Shown here: one piece after another, positions 14,286-20,377 of the stretch | How positions within the stretch are numbered: the stretch's first letter is position 1 | Layout: each line of letters begins with the position of its first letter | Source of the DNA: an uncultured Sphingomonadales bacterium | Lineage (GTDB): Bacteria > Pseudomonadota > Alphaproteobacteria > Sphingomonadales > Rhodothalassiaceae | Direction of reading: 5' to 3' | NCBI GenBank assembly: GCA_947499155.1 | Contig: CANMND010000005.1 | Span: 186,001 to 250,000 of the forward strand | Length of the DNA: 64,000 bases | Position numbers and translations under genes: made by a program | Notes under the pieces: generated by a model | What the model was told of the DNA's origin: nothing | Database searches by the model: none | What the model saw: the letters and a program-made list of their open reading frames with translations, nothing else

Positions 14286-16178
14286 ATGAAGATCGCTCCC
14301 AGTGCGCTCACAACCAAACCTAACAAGCCGACCACATCCTTTTGGCAGATGATCGGACCAGTGCTGCTGTATCTTGTCCTGCACCTGGCATTCGAGGGAC
14401 ACGCCAACTCCTTCCAAACCCCTTTAAATATCACAGCATGGTATCCGCCCAACGCCATTGCCATCGTTTTTCTTCTAATCATGGGTTTGCGCTTCTGGCC
14501 AGTGGTCATAGTCGCATTTCTTCTTGGAAATCTGGCTATATGGGAACAGTGGCAGATTGACTGGTCCACTATACTGCCCCCTATTTTAAACGCCTGTGCC
14601 GCAATCACAGGTGGATACCTCCTTGTTCGCAATCGCCATTTTGTTCCAGGCCCCTACTGGTCACTCAAAGGTCTCGCCGGATTTTGTCTTGTCGCACTTG
14701 CAGTTGCCATTCTGTCCGGTATCGGTACGCAAGGAACATGGCTGCTTCTTGGGCGCATCGATCTGGACCAGATTTCCCAGATGTCCAGCGAGTGGATACT
14801 GGGCGACATGATCGGGCTGATGGTTCTCACCCCATTTTTGCTGGTTATTGCAGTCCCTTTCAGCAACGCATTTTTACCCAGAGGCCGTGACAAGGGTTGG
14901 CGCTATCTGCTGGGAAGAATTCGCAGAACTCCATATCGCGCTCTTGAAGCGCTTGTCCTGTTTGGCTTCACCGTCCTGATCATCCACACGGTCTTCCTGT
15001 CGCCCATAGCGCAATGGCACAATTTACTGTATCTGTGCTTTTTGCCCGTCTTGTGGGCTGTGCTGCGTTACGGCTTTATCGGGGCGACGCTAATAGCGAC
15101 CGTGATCGCCTTTGCTGGCTTAACGGCTGCCCTGCTTCTCGCCGATCCCATAGCATTGTTTCCCAACCGAAACGATATTCATATCTTTCAGTTGTTTATC
15201 CTTGTTCTGGCTCTCGTTGCTTATACACTCGGCGTCACCATGGATGAATTGCGACGCGCCAAGCGTTCAATCGAAGGCCATCGACAGGAATTGGAGGGGA
15301 TTGTCGCGGTCCGGACACAGGAGCTGTCGCGGGAAATAGAAGTACGGCGTCGTGCTGAAGGGGAACTTCGCGCGATGAATGATCAGCTTGAGCATCGAGT
15401 GCTGGAGCGGACCTATGCCTTGAGCAAGGCCCGTGAACGGGCCGAACGGGCAAGTGAGGCAAAAACCCGCTTTCTACAAAATATGAGCCATGAGCTTCAT
15501 ACGCCGCTCAATGCAGTTTTAGGTTTTGCCCAGTTGCTAGAACGAGAAGAACTTGGTCCGCTTGGTCACCCCAAATATCAAGACTATGCCCATCATATCA
15601 TGGCAGCAGGCAGCCACCTTTTGTCCCTGGTTGGTGACCTTCTCGACATGGCTTCCCTGACCGAAGAAAATTATCCACTACAGCGACAGCCACTTGATCT
15701 GACAATGCTCGCCGAAGAAGCCTGTCTCATGAGTGGACCCAAAGCCATGGAACGGCAAATCGCGCTGAAAATGAGTAACGGCTCCGGTGCGATGATGGTC
15801 AATGCTGACAAACATCGCCTGCTACAGGTTCTGCTTAATCTGGTAAATAACGCCATCAAGTTTTCACCCGAAAAAAGCACAATCACCATTTCAACACGCA
15901 CGGATGGCCAGACGGCTATTCTGGAAATCCTGGATGAAGGACCAGGTATCGATCCTGCGGAATCAGAGCTTGTATTTGAGCGCTTCTGGCGCGGCAGCAA
16001 AAGCCAGCTTTCCGATCAAGGCGGCATGGGCCTTGGCCTTGCTATTGCCAGATCATTGACGGAACGTCACGGCGGCACACTCGTCCTTCAAAGCAGGGGC
16101 AATTCAGGCACCTGTGCTGAGATACGTTTGCCCCTCTATAATCAGCTCTCATCGGGAGATCAGGACATGCACACTTAA
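14286..16178 (+). CDS. MASE1-type membrane sensor histidine kinase (orphan)
   Basis: A 630-residue hybrid of a multi-span membrane sensor and a histidine kinase. Residues 1-310 contain about eight hydrophobic segments with a WYPPNAIAIVFLL stretch, characteristic of MASE1 sensors. A coiled coil (about 325-395) leads to the HisKA domain with the phospho-acceptor H402 in NMSHELHTPLN. The ATPase follows: N box VNNAIKF, G1 DEGPGI, F box FERFW, G2 GMGLGLAI. The H box has LHTPLN where LRTPLN is usual. No response regulator lies next to it. It is followed 98 nt later by the Ddl-like gene on the same strand, which may place that operon under its influence; this is inference. Confidence 0.88.
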   Translation: MKIAPSALTTKPNKPTTSFWQMIGPVLLYLVLHLAFEGHANSFQTPLNITAWYPPNAIAIVFLLIMGLRFWPVVIVAFLLGNLAIWEQWQIDWSTILPPILNACAAITGGYLLVRNRHFVPGPYWSLKGLAGFCLVALAVAILSGIGTQGTWLLLGRIDLDQISQMSSEWILGDMIGLMVLTPFLLVIAVPFSNAFLPRGRDKGWRYLLGRIRRTPYRALEALVLFGFTVLIIHTVFLSPIAQWHNLLYLCFLPVLWAVLRYGFIGATLIATVIAFAGLTAALLLADPIALFPNRNDIHIFQLFILVLALVAYTLGVTMDELRRAKRSIEGHRQELEGIVAVRTQELSREIEVRRRAEGELRAMNDQLEHRVLERTYALSKARERAERASEAKTRFLQNMSHELHTPLNAVLGFAQLLEREELGPLGHPKYQDYAHHIMAAGSHLLSLVGDLLDMASLTEENYPLQRQPLDLTMLAEEACLMSGPKAMERQIALKMSNGSGAMMVNADKHRLLQVLLNLVNNAIKFSPEKSTITISTRTDGQTAILEILDEGPGIDPAESELVFERFWRGSKSQLSDQGGMGLGLAIARSLTERHGGTLVLQSRGNSGTCAEIRLPLYNQLSSGDQDMHT

Positions 16179-16276: not shown

Positions 16277-17500
16277 ATGGCAACGGACAAGGCAACCATC
16301 GCCGTGCTTTTTGGCGGACGCAGCGTCGAACATGACGTAAGCGTTCTTACCGGCATACAATTTCTCGAAGCCCTCGATCAGACCCGCTTTACAGGACTTG
16401 CAGTTTATGTGGACCCGAACGGTCAGTGGTGGACAGGTTCAAGCCTTTTAAAGCGCAGTTTTTATCCCCTCACTGCGGACAAGGCAGCAACACTTCAGGC
16501 TGTGACCATGCCAACAGGCCTGGGAATCGGGAAAAGGCCATGCCTGATGACAAGCCGAAAAACCCTGATGGGACAAAAGGTGGATGAAATCCCCTTCGAC
16601 CTTCTGGTACCGGCAATCCACGGCAGCAATGGCGAAGACGGCACATTGCAAGGTCTTTTGTCCTTTTCCAGTATCCCCCATGCCGGATCACGGACATTGG
16701 GGTCAGCGCTCAGCATGGACAAGCACGCCACAAAGGAAATGCTTTCAGGCAAAAACATTCCGCTTTTGCCGCACCTGTTGGTGGATCGTCCGGAAACTGG
16801 CGGCTTTGTCGGCAGGAAAGAGCTTCTGCCTGCGCTTGAGAAAAAATTCGGGGCAGATATTTTCCCTGCCATCGTCAAGCCCCGCAATCTTGGATCAAGC
16901 GTCGGCGTATCAGCAGTGCAGGATCCTGATACGCTGGAAGCAGCCATTGCCACAGTGTTTCGCATGGACAAAAGCGCCCTGATTGAGCCTTTGGTCCAAA
17001 ATCTGGTCGAATATAATGTGGCCGTTATGCGCCGCAACGGCGTGATTGAGACATCCGCAATCGAAAAGCCGCTCAAATCCGGAGAGCTTCTTGATTTCAA
17101 AACCAAATATTTGGCAGGCAGCCGAGGCGGGCCGAAACTGGATGATGCGCCAAGCGAAGGCATGGCATCCCTGAACCGCGAACTGAACCCCGACAATCTC
17201 ACGCCAGAACAGGACGCCCTGATCCGCAACAGTGCAACCACTGCCTTTGACACTCTTGACCTTGCCGGGACAGTAAGAGTTGATTTCCTCAGCAATGAAG
17301 AGACCGGCGAAATCTGGCTAAACGAAGTGAACTCCATACCCGGATCATTTGCCTATTTCCTGTGGCAGGCGGCCCAAAACCCGCTCAGCTTTACTGCCCT
17401 TGCCACCCATATGGTGGAGGAAGGACTTGCCTTCCACCGCACCAGACAAGGTGACACCAGTGCAACCACAGGCAATGCGCGGATTTTCGCCGGTGATTGA
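16277..17500 (+). CDS. D-alanine--D-alanine ligase-like ATP-grasp enzyme
   Basis: An ATP-grasp ligase of 407 residues with the Ddl layout: N-terminal FGGRSVEHDVSVLTG, the central VPAIHGSNGEDGTLQGLL and SALSMDKHATKEML, and the metal/phosphate site NEVNSIPG beginning at N349. It differs from housekeeping Ddl: it is longer, the final motif continues SFAYFLWQ rather than the common FTxxS, and the omega-loop region (KYLAGSRGGPK...) is unusual. Substrate amino acids are therefore uncertain (D-Ala-D-Ala or another dipeptide). It overlaps the hydrolase gene by 26 nt, and that gene overlaps the MurF-like gene, so the three form a coupled unit. Confidence 0.82.
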   Translation: MATDKATIAVLFGGRSVEHDVSVLTGIQFLEALDQTRFTGLAVYVDPNGQWWTGSSLLKRSFYPLTADKAATLQAVTMPTGLGIGKRPCLMTSRKTLMGQKVDEIPFDLLVPAIHGSNGEDGTLQGLLSFSSIPHAGSRTLGSALSMDKHATKEMLSGKNIPLLPHLLVDRPETGGFVGRKELLPALEKKFGADIFPAIVKPRNLGSSVGVSAVQDPDTLEAAIATVFRMDKSALIEPLVQNLVEYNVAVMRRNGVIETSAIEKPLKSGELLDFKTKYLAGSRGGPKLDDAPSEGMASLNRELNPDNLTPEQDALIRNSATTAFDTLDLAGTVRVDFLSNEETGEIWLNEVNSIPGSFAYFLWQAAQNPLSFTALATHMVEEGLAFHRTRQGDTSATTGNARIFAGD

Positions 17501-18272
17501 GAGCGGCTGGAAGTTCCATACTCCGGCGCACACCGCTGGCACGCAGACACAGCCTGATATTGTCTGGCTTCATGGCTGGGGGCAAACCGGCGAAAGCCTG
17601 TTGCCGCTCGCCCGGCTATTTTCCCATCAGGCACACAACCATGTCCCCGACCTTCCCGGATTTGGCCAAACACCGATGCTGCACGAAGGTGCCAGCAGCG
17701 CTGACTATGCAGACGCGCTTTATCAGGTTCTGAACAAACTAGGCATAGGAACACGGCGACCTGTTTTGATCGGCCATTCCTTCGGGGCACGGGTCGCCAT
17801 CCGTTTTGCCGCCCGTTACCCCGAGTCTCTTGGTGGCATTGTGTTGATTGCTGGCGCAGGTCTTAAACGCCGCCGCTCTCTCGGCTTTCGTCTTCGTGCC
17901 CAGGCCTTGCGCATGGTTGGCAAATCAGCGCGCCTTCTGGACAGCCTGTTCAAAAGCAATCTCCAGACAGCTTTCAGGACGCGGTTTGGGAGTGCCGATT
18001 ACCGCAATGCCGGCCTCTTGCGCGGGACGCTGGTCTCTGTTGTCAATGAAGACCTGACTGAACAGGCACAGCAGGTAAACGTGCCCACACTGCTTATCTA
18101 TGGCGCAGAGGATGACGCCACGCCGCCTGAATTTGGCGAGCGTTACAAGTCCCTTATCCCGGATGCAACACTCCATGTTCTTCAGGGCTTTGGACATCTT
18201 GATGTGCTAAATCGTGGCGCATGGCAGTGCCAAAGTCTGATCGAGGGTTTTCTGGAGCGAATTAAGCCATGA
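17475..18272 (+). CDS. Alpha/beta-fold hydrolase
   Basis: A 265-residue alpha/beta hydrolase. The oxyanion region is WLHGWGQTG, the nucleophile serine lies in GHSFGARVA, the acid in YGAEDDATPP and the histidine in GFGHLDVLN, so a full catalytic triad is present. No signal peptide is seen, so it is probably cytoplasmic. The frame opens at 17349 inside the Ddl-like gene; the ATG at 17475 (or a GTG at 17493) gives the family-length protein. Its stop overlaps the MurF-like start (ATGA). The context suggests it trims or hydrolyses a product or activated intermediate of the two ligases; the substrate is unknown. Confidence 0.82.
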   Translation: MRGFSPVIESGWKFHTPAHTAGTQTQPDIVWLHGWGQTGESLLPLARLFSHQAHNHVPDLPGFGQTPMLHEGASSADYADALYQVLNKLGIGTRRPVLIGHSFGARVAIRFAARYPESLGGIVLIAGAGLKRRRSLGFRLRAQALRMVGKSARLLDSLFKSNLQTAFRTRFGSADYRNAGLLRGTLVSVVNEDLTEQAQQVNVPTLLIYGAEDDATPPEFGERYKSLIPDATLHVLQGFGHLDVLNRGAWQCQSLIEGFLERIKP

Positions 18273-19933
18273 CTATCGCAAACCTTGCAAATGCGGGCGC
18301 AATTGGCCTGTTGCTTCTTGCCCTTGTGGTTTTCATCTACCAGCGCGGGCTGACCTATCTCATGTTTTTCCAGCAGGAAGAATATGACCGTCGGCGCTTT
18401 ATGGTCTGGCTCAAGCAGACAAAGGCACGGGATCGAACAACAAGCCTTATCGCCATTGTGGCAGGGGTCGTTGGATTCGGCGCAACTTATGGGCAGGCCT
18501 GGACCGCGCCCGTCGCTTCCCTGATTTTGCTGATCGGCATGATTGAAGGGATAAGGCGCAGCATCCTTCCCCGACGTCACGCCAAAAAAGCCCTGGTCAT
18601 GACCAAGCGGGCCAGACGCATTTTGGCCGTCTATATGGCCTTTTCCATCACACTTTGCGCTGCTCTGGGGCTTGTGGCGAGCCAGTGGCAGACCGTTCAA
18701 AGCGGTGCGGTCCTGCTGATCATCCTGATGGTTCTGATTCTTGCCCAATCTGCCCCTTATCTTTTGTCCGCCGCCAATAGCGCATTATCACCACTTGAAT
18801 CCCGGGTGAAAAAGCGCTTTCTGACAGAAGCAAAAGACAAGCTGGCGCGTCTTGATCCTTATGTCATTGGCATTACCGGCAGTTATGGGAAAACCAGCAC
18901 AAAATCCATTTTGGCTCATATTTTATCAGGCGCAGCTCCAACGCTTGCGACACCGGGCAGCGTCAATACGGAAATGGGAATTACCCGGATCATACGAGAA
19001 CAGCTGACACCGGATCATCGCTATTTTATCGTTGAAATGGGTGCCTATGGACCTGGCTCTATTGCGCGCCTTTGCCGCCTCACTCCCCCATCAACCGGGA
19101 TCATTACCGCTATAGGCTGGGCACATTATGAGCGCTTTAAATCTGAGCAGACAGTCTTTGATGCCAAATTCGAGCTGGCAGATGCTGTCACAGCCGCTGG
19201 CGGCACATTAGTCATCAATCAGGATGCCATATCCCAGGACATGCTCTCCACCCGTACCGGCCGCACAGGCGAGACTTATTTGACTATTGGCCGTGGTGAA
19301 CAGGCGTCCCTTCGTCTTCTGGATGTAACCCAAACAGTCGATGGCCTGACCCTTAAAGTTAAAAGCAATGATCTGGGGATAACCGAGTTGCGCGCCCCGC
19401 TTTATGGTACCCATCAGGCCATGAACATACTGGCGGCAACAGCCCTTGGCATGCAACTGGGCCTGTCCATCGACGCCATCCGGGCAGCCTTGGCCAGTGT
19501 CCCCCAGGCCCGCCACCGTCTGGAGGTAACCGAAAGGGGCGGTATCACTATTATTGACGACGCCTATAATGCCAACCCTTCGGGCTTTGCATCAGGTCTG
19601 GAACTTCTGGATGTTTTGCGCAAACCCACCGAAGGCCGCCGTATCCTCATCAGTCCGGGTATGGTCGAACTGGGTGCCCGTCATGACGAAGAACACGCAC
19701 GAATCGGTGAAATCGCCGCACGGCATGTGGATATTGCCCTCATCGTCACGCCGGACCGCATTGAGACTTTTGTCGAGGCATTCCTTGCTCACAAGCCAGA
19801 CAGCGCGATTCTCATGCGTTTTGACCGTCAGGCCGATGCGGAAAACTGGATAAAGGCCAATGCGCGATCAGGCGACGCCATCCTTTACGAAAATAACCTG
19901 CCAGACCTCTATGAAGCCCATCCCGTTTTCTGA
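18269..19933 (+). CDS. Membrane-anchored MurF-like Mur ligase
   Basis: A 554-residue protein in two parts. Residues 1-165 hold about five hydrophobic segments (near 8-27, 58-77, 80-95, 115-135, 143-165). From about 200 on is a Mur ligase core: P-loop GSYGKTSTK with K208, the EMGAYGPGSIARL segment, AIGWAHYERF, a lysine in FDAKFELADA at the place of the carbamylated lysine, and DDAYNANPSG as in MurF, then a full C-terminal Mur domain. The usual N-terminal UDP-MurNAc-peptide-binding domain of MurF is missing. It should therefore make an amide bond at the membrane rather than on a soluble nucleotide precursor. It is coupled to the hydrolase and Ddl-like genes and ends at a terminator. Confidence 0.85.
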   Translation: MTIANLANAGAIGLLLLALVVFIYQRGLTYLMFFQQEEYDRRRFMVWLKQTKARDRTTSLIAIVAGVVGFGATYGQAWTAPVASLILLIGMIEGIRRSILPRRHAKKALVMTKRARRILAVYMAFSITLCAALGLVASQWQTVQSGAVLLIILMVLILAQSAPYLLSAANSALSPLESRVKKRFLTEAKDKLARLDPYVIGITGSYGKTSTKSILAHILSGAAPTLATPGSVNTEMGITRIIREQLTPDHRYFIVEMGAYGPGSIARLCRLTPPSTGIITAIGWAHYERFKSEQTVFDAKFELADAVTAAGGTLVINQDAISQDMLSTRTGRTGETYLTIGRGEQASLRLLDVTQTVDGLTLKVKSNDLGITELRAPLYGTHQAMNILAATALGMQLGLSIDAIRAALASVPQARHRLEVTERGGITIIDDAYNANPSGFASGLELLDVLRKPTEGRRILISPGMVELGARHDEEHARIGEIAARHVDIALIVTPDRIETFVEAFLAHKPDSAILMRFDRQADAENWIKANARSGDAILYENNLPDLYEAHPVF

Positions 19934-19993: not shown

Positions 19994-20377
19994 TTAGTTC
20001 AGCACCCAGCTCAGCGGCAGATCAAATGTCAGTTCAGCCTCACTTAAGCTCTGGGGTGGTTTTGGCAATGGATTCACGCGATCCATGAGCCGCGAAATTT
20101 CGCCATCAAGAATTTTGTGGCCGGTAGATTCAATTACTTCATAAGACTGGATTGCACCGGATCGGTCCATCGTCACACGGACCCTGGCAACGCCCTCCAT
20201 TTCTCGTATCAGTGCCGTACGCGGATAAATCTGTTTCGATGCGACCGATTGAGCAACTGAGTTCTGCCAATTATCGAGACTCGACGCACTGGCAGGACCT
20301 GCCTGTACAAAAAAACCAAGCGCAATCGCCAATGCGCCAATAAAGACTACACGCGTAAGCATAACATCACATTCCAT
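19994..20377 (-). CDS. Secreted TonB C-terminal-domain protein
   Basis: A small 127-residue protein with a signal peptide (MLTRVVFIGALAIALGFFVQ..., cleavage likely after ASA). The remainder is a single TonB C-terminal-like domain: YPRTALIREMEGVARVRVTM, then SYEVIESTGHKILDGEI. True TonB has an N-terminal membrane anchor and a proline-rich spacer; both are absent, so it should be a free periplasmic domain. The start could be at 20377 or at an internal ATG at 20362. No ExbB, ExbD or receptor gene is adjacent, so a role in iron or TonB-dependent transport is not supported by context. Confidence 0.75.
   Translation of the reverse strand: MECDVMLTRVVFIGALAIALGFFVQAGPASASSLDNWQNSVAQSVASKQIYPRTALIREMEGVARVRVTMDRSGAIQSYEVIESTGHKILDGEISRLMDRVNPLPKPPQSLSEAELTFDLPLSWVLN

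What the first reader, a model, noticed from the sequence alone, without database searches (positions are those of the whole stretch)
16277..19933. Coupled Ddl-like / hydrolase / membrane Mur-ligase module
Three overlapping genes encode an ATP-grasp Ddl-like ligase, an alpha/beta hydrolase with a full triad, and a MurF-like ligase. Ddl and MurF normally act in sequence in cell-wall synthesis, but here the MurF-like partner is built for the membrane. The set looks like a parallel pathway that makes a dipeptide (perhaps with D-amino acids) and ligates it to a membrane acceptor, with the hydrolase editing or activating. The overlaps (26 nt and ATGA) show tight coupling.
Basis: partly seen in the sequence, partly recalled or inferred. 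Interest (0 to 1): 0.72.

Follow-up and report, generated by a model that had tools for sequence, protein, structure and literature searches.

The report
Membrane MurF substitute with partner Ddl
Three linked genes encode what looks like an alternative way of finishing the peptide of the bacterial cell-wall building block, using a ligase built into the membrane, and in many relatives this set appears to stand in for two standard cell-wall enzymes, MurF and Ddl.

Summary
Genes 16277-17500, 17475-18272 and 18269-19933 encode a Ddl-type ATP-grasp ligase (DdlL), an alpha/beta hydrolase with an intact triad (Hyd) and a MurF-type ligase whose UDP-MurNAc-binding domain is replaced by a membrane region (MurX). 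The genome is Iodidimonas-like. DdlL is its only Ddl: the dcw cluster runs murB-ftsQ without ddl. Canonical murF is kept, so the set is not simply 'parallel'. MurX and DdlL occur in the same genomes (39 of 99 sampled in the order; 18 of 387 in the class), in seven loci inside the dcw cluster, and the trio recurs in Actinomycetota. In 19 of 25 MurX genomes searched no intact canonical MurF was found. Of the 17 whose murE-mraY junction could be read, 14 have no murF there and three keep a relic without a P-loop. Among 369 class genomes without MurX, 10 lack a MurF match. Best explanation: DdlL plus MurX perform the last two stem-peptide ligations, MurX probably on a lipid-linked tripeptide after MraY. 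DdlL has lost the usual Ser281 of the second-substrate site, so the dipeptide may not be D-Ala-D-Ala. Acceptor, dipeptide and role of Hyd are inferred, not shown.

The parts
16277..17500 (+). DdlL: long Ddl-type ATP-grasp ligase, 407 aa; only PF01820 match of the genome
   Evidence: rebuilt second-substrate site PGSFAYFLW (residues 355-363) with catalytic K277/Y278 kept; E. coli Ddl numbering from the alignment
17475..18272 (+). Hyd: alpha/beta hydrolase, 265 aa from ATG 17475; triad S102-D213-H241; further invariant S173, D175, Y176, V190, E192
   Evidence: (AlphaFold2 mean pLDDT 94.4)
18269..19933 (+). MurX: MurF-type ligase, 554 aa, N-terminal membrane region in place of the UDP-MurNAc-binding domain
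   Evidence: (mean pLDDT 91.7)
18269..18868 (+). MurX membrane region (about residues 1-200): five long helices in the model; conserved loops QQEEYDxxRF and KKxLxxTxRxxR on the predicted cytoplasmic side
   Evidence: A1 and A2 conservation, helices, charge bias
18869..19930 (+). MurX catalytic domains: P-loop GSYGKTS (residues 204-210), DDAYNANP (430-437), C-terminal ENNLPDLYE where MurF has KGS

Best explanation
The three genes are an alternative terminal module of peptidoglycan precursor synthesis. DdlL joins D-Ala to a second residue (D-Ala or something close), and MurX, a MurF whose UDP-sugar-binding domain has been replaced by a membrane domain, ligates that dipeptide to the stem tripeptide. 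Because MurX sits in the membrane and lacks the UDP-MurNAc-binding domain, its acceptor is most likely the undecaprenyl-pyrophosphate-linked tripeptide made by MraY (lipid I or lipid II), so the stem would be completed after, not before, lipid linkage. Hyd acts with MurX, probably as an esterase or peptidase that supplies, trims or proofreads the dipeptide or an ester of it; this is the weakest step. SHOWN here by computation: domain make-up, conservation, co-occurrence of DdlL with MurX, displacement of ddl, absence of intact murF in many MurX genomes, retained MurF chemistry motifs. INFERRED: functional replacement of MurF, lipid-linked acceptor, nature of the dipeptide, role of Hyd. In the window's own organism murF is still present, so both routes may run there, or MurX may serve a second branch.
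For: Own genome: dcw order ftsI-murE-murF-mraY-murD-ftsW-murG-murC-murB-ftsQ-ftsA-ftsZ with no ddl; DdlL the only PF01820 match. Order sample: MurX above 300 bits and the long unsplit Ddl match in the same 39 of 99 genomes; 55 of the other 60 show the split short-Ddl match and 5 show none. Class sample: MurX in 18 of 387; DdlL above 220 bits in the same 18. Trio inside the dcw cluster beside ftsQ in 7 loci (L122, L123, L127, L131, L156, L160, L163). TIGR01143 search of 25 MurX genomes: full-length canonical MurF in 6 (G000, G195, G262, G419, G467, G283), not in 19. murE-mraY junction read in 17 of those 19: 14 have no murF, 3 have a MurF relic without P-loop. Control: 10 of 369 class genomes without MurX lack a MurF match, against 12 of 18 with MurX (Fisher p about 5e-13, relatedness ignored). 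8-9 separate losses on a tree of 50 dcw clusters. FtsI with SxxK, SxN and KTG motifs in 13 of 17 MurF-less or relic clusters, so donors for D,D-transpeptidation are still expected. MurX keeps P-loop and DDAYN[AS]NP; its Mur domains align with MurF structures at Z up to 36.4; PF01225 not found in 4 of 4 MurX tested but found in own MurF. Trio in Actinomycetota in 19 of 20 stretches fetched, with murE abutting mraY in G482. Pairwise identities of MurX and DdlL correlate at 0.95 over 45 loci.
Against: In the window's genome and in the 14 other MurX clusters of its order that I fetched (L084-L097) canonical murF is present, with P-loop conserved, so MurX is not needed to replace it there. G195, G262, G283, G419 and G467 also keep both. 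No biochemistry. Several MurF-less genomes are drafts, and G108 and G483 could not be read. The lipid-linked acceptor rests only on the domain swap and the basic loops. MurX scores below the curated MurF cut-off (224.9 of 288.6 bits), and its C-terminal domain lacks the MurF KGS, so a different incoming amine is possible. Hyd is not near MurX in G283 (L165). Ten genomes without MurX also lack a MurF match.
Confidence: 0.6

Rival explanations
1. MurX is simply a membrane-tethered MurF acting on the normal soluble acceptor UDP-MurNAc-tripeptide, with the membrane domain serving only to place it beside MraY; pathway order is unchanged.
For: Functional replacement of MurF does not by itself require a lipid acceptor; MurX is close to MurF in the middle and C-terminal domains; three genomes keep a long relic with traces, by eye, of the MurF N-terminal domain that could still hold UDP-MurNAc.
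Against: No PF01225 match in 4 of 4 MurX tested; 14 clusters have no murF relic at the junction, so no such partner is seen there; invariant residues of the membrane region lie in the predicted cytoplasmic loops.
Confidence: 0.2
2. DdlL is an ordinary housekeeping Ddl that has displaced the dcw copy, and Hyd-MurX uses D-Ala-D-Ala to decorate another envelope molecule (lipid, lipoprotein or glycan). MurF-less genomes build tripeptide peptidoglycan cross-linked by L,D-transpeptidases.
For: Canonical murF persists beside MurX in the window's order; MurX differs from MurF at the C-terminal motif.
Against: It does not explain why DdlL was not seen without MurX (same 18 of 387 and same 39 of 99), why the module sits in the dcw cluster in 7 loci, why murF is missing in MurX genomes, or why FtsI motifs stay. 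L,D-transpeptidases were not surveyed.
Confidence: 0.15
3. MurF losses are assembly or annotation artefacts, or canonical MurF has diverged beyond the model, and MurX has an unrelated function.
For: Many MurF-less genomes are fragmented drafts; the G108 and G483 junctions could not be seen.
Against: murE and mraY lie side by side on one contig in 14 genomes, including five estimated 99-100% complete (G127, G144, G197, G284, G296); 359 of 369 genomes without MurX give a MurF match by the same test; relics lacking the P-loop lie in the expected slot.
Confidence: 0.05

Closest known systems
MurF, UDP-MurNAc-tripeptide:D-Ala-D-Ala ligase (TIGR01143; structures 4cvk, 1gg4, 3zl8)
   Same: Mur middle and C-terminal domains, P-loop GxxGKT, DDAYNANP signature, best fold match (3zl8: Z 36.4, rmsd 4.1, 370 aligned)
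   Different: No PF01225 match, a membrane region instead, KGS replaced by EN[DN]LPD, below the curated cut-off
[quoted passage not shown] E. coli Ddl 1iov, S. aureus Ddl 2i80)
   Same: Both domains; equivalents of E. coli E15, K215, Y216, R255 and N272
   Different: The E. coli S281 equivalent is F or Y in 57 of 57 and the V283 equivalent is W in 57 of 57; E263, P265 and N247 are invariant in the family
MurT/GatD lipid II amidating complex
   Same: A Mur ligase without the UDP domain that acts on a lipid-linked precursor with a hydrolase-type partner (recalled); a works-like analogy
   Different: MurX is not in the MurT family (25.1 bits of an 800 cut-off), the partner is an alpha/beta hydrolase, and MurX has a membrane region
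Cyanophycin synthetase CphA (ATP-grasp + Mur ligase in one chain)
   Same: Combines ATP-grasp and Mur ligase chemistry (recalled); fold match Z 29.3 over the Mur part (7wae)
   Different: Here the two are separate genes of Ddl and MurF type; 36 bits of an 877 cut-off

Membership tests
MurF (TIGR01143) | Mur ligase middle and C-terminal domains | tested here: met
   PF08245 119.9 bits, PF02875 43.8 bits
MurF (TIGR01143) | N-terminal UDP-MurNAc-binding domain (PF01225) | tested here: not met
   no match at E 0.05 in 4 of 4 MurX; own canonical MurF 32 bits
MurF (TIGR01143) | curated whole-protein score of 288.6 bits | tested here: not met
   224.9 bits
MurF (TIGR01143) | P-loop GxxGKT and DDxYNANP signature | tested here: met
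   G204, G207, K208, T209 and D431, N434, N436 invariant in alignments of 22 and 29 MurX
MurF (TIGR01143) | ligation of D-Ala-D-Ala to UDP-MurNAc-tripeptide | not testable with these tools
   needs biochemistry
Ddl (TIGR01205) | PF01820 and PF07478 domains, catalytic Lys-Tyr, Arg and Asn | tested here: met
Ddl (TIGR01205) | curated score of 245.65 bits | tested here: not met
   227.7 bits
Ddl (TIGR01205) | Ser281 (E. coli numbering) at the second-substrate site (role recalled) | tested here: not met
   0 of 57 DdlL have Ser; 7 of 7 correctly read comparison Ddls do
MurT/GatD | MurT profile and glutamine amidotransferase partner | tested here: not met
   25.1 bits of 800; partner is Abhydrolase_1
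Cyanophycin synthetase | fused ATP-grasp and Mur ligase in one chain | tested here: not met
   separate reading frames; below cut-off
Alpha/beta hydrolase (PF00561) | fold and Ser-Asp-His triad | tested here: met
   79.4 bits, triad invariant in 27 of 27, Z 25.4-28.3 to the 50 rows shown

The most novel reading that the evidence does not exclude
These bacteria finish the peptidoglycan stem at the membrane: MraY transfers a UDP-MurNAc-tripeptide, and MurX then adds a dipeptide made by DdlL whose second residue is not D-Ala (the Ser281 of Ddl is replaced by an aromatic residue, and the MurF KGS by ENDLPD, in partner enzymes of the same genomes). A re-ordered pathway with a different terminal residue, which has displaced MurF repeatedly and in two phyla.
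Probability: 0.3. Interest if true: 0.92.

Novelty: new variant of a known kind. Interest (0 to 1): 0.8.

Why it matters
MurF and Ddl are taught as the soluble last steps of peptidoglycan precursor synthesis and are studied as antibiotic targets. A membrane-embedded substitute that has apparently taken over from MurF several times in Alphaproteobacteria, and in at least one Actinomycetota genome, would mean that the order of the pathway is not fixed, and it makes 'must the stem be complete before MraY?' directly testable. It also offers a natural Ddl family with a rebuilt second-substrate site, and it explains genomes that look as if they lack murF and the usual ddl.

Tried and rejected
Firmicutes relatives: I recall similar 'PGSLAFYLW' Ddls and membrane Mur ligases there but could not test it. 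tblastn of MurX and of the L132 MurX against plasmid records gave no record with 80% coverage, and in the rows shown the matches are limited to the Mur domains; the Subdoligranulum match is an ordinary dcw murF. The DdlL and L132 Ddl queries on plasmids returned Ddl/Van-type ligases below 60% identity (28.5-33.0% and 31.4-36.5% in the rows shown); their active-site motifs were not read.

Hydrolase fold: the 50 rows shown are esterases, lipases, C-C hydrolases and the like within three Z units of each other, so no substrate can be read from it. Neighbour genes: no fourth family recurs across both phyla in a way that I trust (several of its clusters are frames antisense to the trio or merged families).

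PgsB/CapB and FolC were considered; a further Mur-domain gene at C5:214054 looks like folC (by score and place) and PgsB was not tested. The fold search of MurX barely tested residues before 28.

Papers: searches (listings with titles and starts of abstracts, capped lists) showed no title or abstract start describing a membrane MurF, this trio or murF loss in these groups; some returned no paper. Of PMC8871954 and PMC10556733 only passages were seen. The library holds open-licence papers only, so 'not in print' is not claimed beyond it.

Rows dropped: of the eight outside Ddl loci (L187-L194), L193 was not tried, L187, L191 and L194 gave no frame by my rule, and L188 was read in a wrong frame, so the comparison set is 7 Ddls (4 dcw-type, 3 other). 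G094 shows a second PF01820 match that is a 57-nt stub at a contig edge; I counted it as one gene. The 15 MurX-negative tips of the tree were chosen from genomes with a MurF match, so the tree counts losses only and does not test the association; one search does. Four fetched clusters (L275, L278, L279, L283) and L201, L206, L215 had too few genes for the tree or were not in it.
Full report
WHAT IS THERE. The three frames are as reported, and the overlaps are real: ATG 17475 lies 26 nt inside DdlL, and ATGA joins Hyd to MurX. Pfam gives Ddl N and C domains, an alpha/beta hydrolase, and Mur ligase middle and C domains. The window lies in a 2.81 Mb genome (G000). A same-genus genome, G020, has the contig length of Iodidimonas muriae JCM 17843, so this is an Iodidimonas-like alphaproteobacterium; the size is near that printed for I. 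gelatinilytica (2.85 Mb, passage of PMC10556733), but the species is not established.

IS THERE ANOTHER ddl OR murF? DdlL is the only match to the Ddl N-terminal domain. The four other PF07478 matches are weaker (51 bits and below) and lie in frames of 453-704 aa; I take them for carboxylase-type ATP-grasp enzymes (an inference). The dcw cluster is ftsI-murE-murF-mraY-murD-ftsW-murG-murC-murB-ftsQ-ftsA-ftsZ, with murB and ftsQ overlapping and no ddl. Canonical murF is present.

CO-OCCURRENCE. In 99 sampled genomes of the order, MurX (above 300 bits) is in 39, and the long, unsplit Ddl N-domain match is in the same 39. Of the other 60, 55 have the split match typical of the short dcw Ddl and 5 have none. 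In 387 sampled genomes of the class, MurX is in 18 and DdlL above 220 bits is in the same 18; eight further genomes match at 90-115 bits with a different long Ddl. All 20 order-level stretches fetched around MurX hold DdlL-Hyd-MurX in that order. Of 17 class-level stretches, 11 hold all three, 4 hold Hyd-MurX (their DdlL is on another contig), and 2 hold MurX alone (G283, whose stretch extends over 15 kb, and G467, whose contig is 3.6 kb). Hyd is upstream of MurX on the same strand even where DdlL is divergent. In 7 loci the set lies inside the dcw cluster beside ftsQ, where ddl normally sits (L122, L123, L127, L131, L156, L160, L163). Of the 14 dcw clusters fetched from other MurX genomes of the order, 13 reach ftsQ and all 13 have murB followed by ftsQ without ddl, whereas 4 of 4 MurX-free clusters fetched then have the short ddl between them.

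SECOND PHYLUM. One named hit, L132, is a contig titled Actinomycetota with the order Hyd-MurX-DdlL beside a sigma-factor-like gene. A sample of 396 genomes of that phylum gave 12 strong MurX matches (above 500 bits) and 22 more at 194-254 bits that run to the MurX C-terminus; other matches at E 1e-40 look like canonical MurF. Of 20 such stretches fetched (9 strong, 11 second-tier), 19 hold all three genes, though in L255 DdlL is about 5.6 kb off, and one ends after MurX. The 22 Ddls printed (these 19, L132, and L129 and L130 from other MAGs) all have Tyr at the Ser281 place.

MURX SEEMS TO REPLACE MURF. TIGR01143 was run on 25 MurX-bearing genomes: full-length canonical MurF in 6 (five over the cut-off; G283 at 225 bits), none in 19 (weaker matches there fall on murE, murC or murD where I could place them). 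Locating mraY and fetching the clusters let me read the murE-mraY junction in 17 of the 19. Fourteen have no murF gene; the gap is at most about 170 nt in ten and about 460-490 nt in four (L198, L201, L203, L204). Three (G365, G428, G137) keep an open relic in the murF slot in which I find no P-loop or YNANP motif; the two that were scanned fall below the Pfam cut-off for the Mur middle domain and show no PF01225 match. G108 and G483 could not be read. Control: 377 of 387 class genomes have a MurF-type match at 1e-45; 10 do not, all without MurX, four of them from one 0.9 Mb family. Setting MurX itself aside, 12 of 18 MurX genomes lack MurF against 10 of 369 others (Fisher p about 5e-13; relatedness ignored). 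On a midpoint-rooted tree of 50 dcw clusters, murF loss or decay maps to 9 events, 8 with weak nodes collapsed. Results against: G000 and the 14 other MurX clusters fetched from its order keep murF, as do G195, G262, G283, G419 and G467.

ANATOMY. AlphaFold2 gives MurX mean pLDDT 91.7, with helices 3-36, 56-74, 79-103, 113-138 and 146-195. Positive charge on alternate loops only suggests five TM segments with the ligase in the cytoplasm; the hydropathy scan passes four in the window protein, and 31 of 64 MurX give four, 21 five, 9 three and 3 two. PF01225, the UDP-sugar domain of MurF (recalled), is not found in 4 of 4 MurX and is found in own MurF. Invariant residues include Q35, Y39, K107, T112 and R114 in the predicted cytoplasmic loops, the P-loop, and D431, N434, N436; that the basic loops meet a pyrophosphate-lipid is inference. 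MurF structures are the best fold matches. In DdlL, the E. coli Ser281 position (numbering) is F in 44 and Y in 13 of 57, and Val283 is W in 57 of 57, while K215 (56 of 57), Y216, R255 and N272 equivalents are kept. The C-terminal KGS of MurF corresponds to EN[DN]LPD in MurX. Changes at dipeptide-recognition places (roles recalled) in partner enzymes fit a changed dipeptide but do not prove it. FtsI shows SxxK, SxN and KTG in 13 of 17 MurF-less or relic clusters; in the other four one or more was not found by pattern, one of them being cut by a contig end. So D,D-transpeptidation, and hence a D-Ala-X terminus, is still expected.

MECHANISM. DdlL makes the dipeptide; MurX adds it to the tripeptide, most likely on lipid I or II; Hyd helps in a way that I cannot specify. 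Hyd is esterase-like by fold with an invariant triad. Pairwise identities of MurX and DdlL correlate at 0.95 over 45 loci, and with Hyd at 0.88 and 0.90, as for a unit inherited together; shared species history contributes to this.

VERDICT. A real and widespread module for which I found no description in the searches listed under Tried and rejected. That it finishes peptidoglycan stems is well supported by genome logic; that it does so on a lipid-linked acceptor, perhaps with an unusual dipeptide, is a testable inference.

Noticed in passing
L199:8041-9345, L200:7458-8741, L202:11157-13565: MurF relics in the murF slot without P-loop or YNANP motif but still open, with traces (by eye) of the N-terminal domain; in L202 the relic is in frame behind MurE, and its sister genome G156 has a MurF match in a frame of 947 aa, probably a MurE-MurF fusion.
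   Followed up: partly
L198, L201, L203, L204 between murE and mraY: A gap of about 460-490 nt remains where murF would be, possibly a later stage of decay.
   Followed up: no
genomes G122, G311, G379 (family f32): Only one weak MurF match each (E about 1e-65 to 1e-67) and no MurX at 1e-40; perhaps another divergent MurF.
   Followed up: no
L080:12297-13856: A MurJ-like lipid II flippase gene (by eye) lies within the fetched stretch around the trio in 8 alphaproteobacterial loci.
   Followed up: no
L132:4852-5493 and 8 further actinobacterial loci: A SigR-like sigma factor gene (by eye) lies near the trio.
   Followed up: no
L202 and L214: No murD was detected in the fetched dcw stretches of G137 and G127.
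   Followed up: no
window 14286-16178: MASE1 sensor histidine kinase just upstream of the trio on the same strand.
   Followed up: no
window 19994-20377: Small protein, convergent with MurX, that is little more than a TonB C-terminal domain.
   Followed up: no
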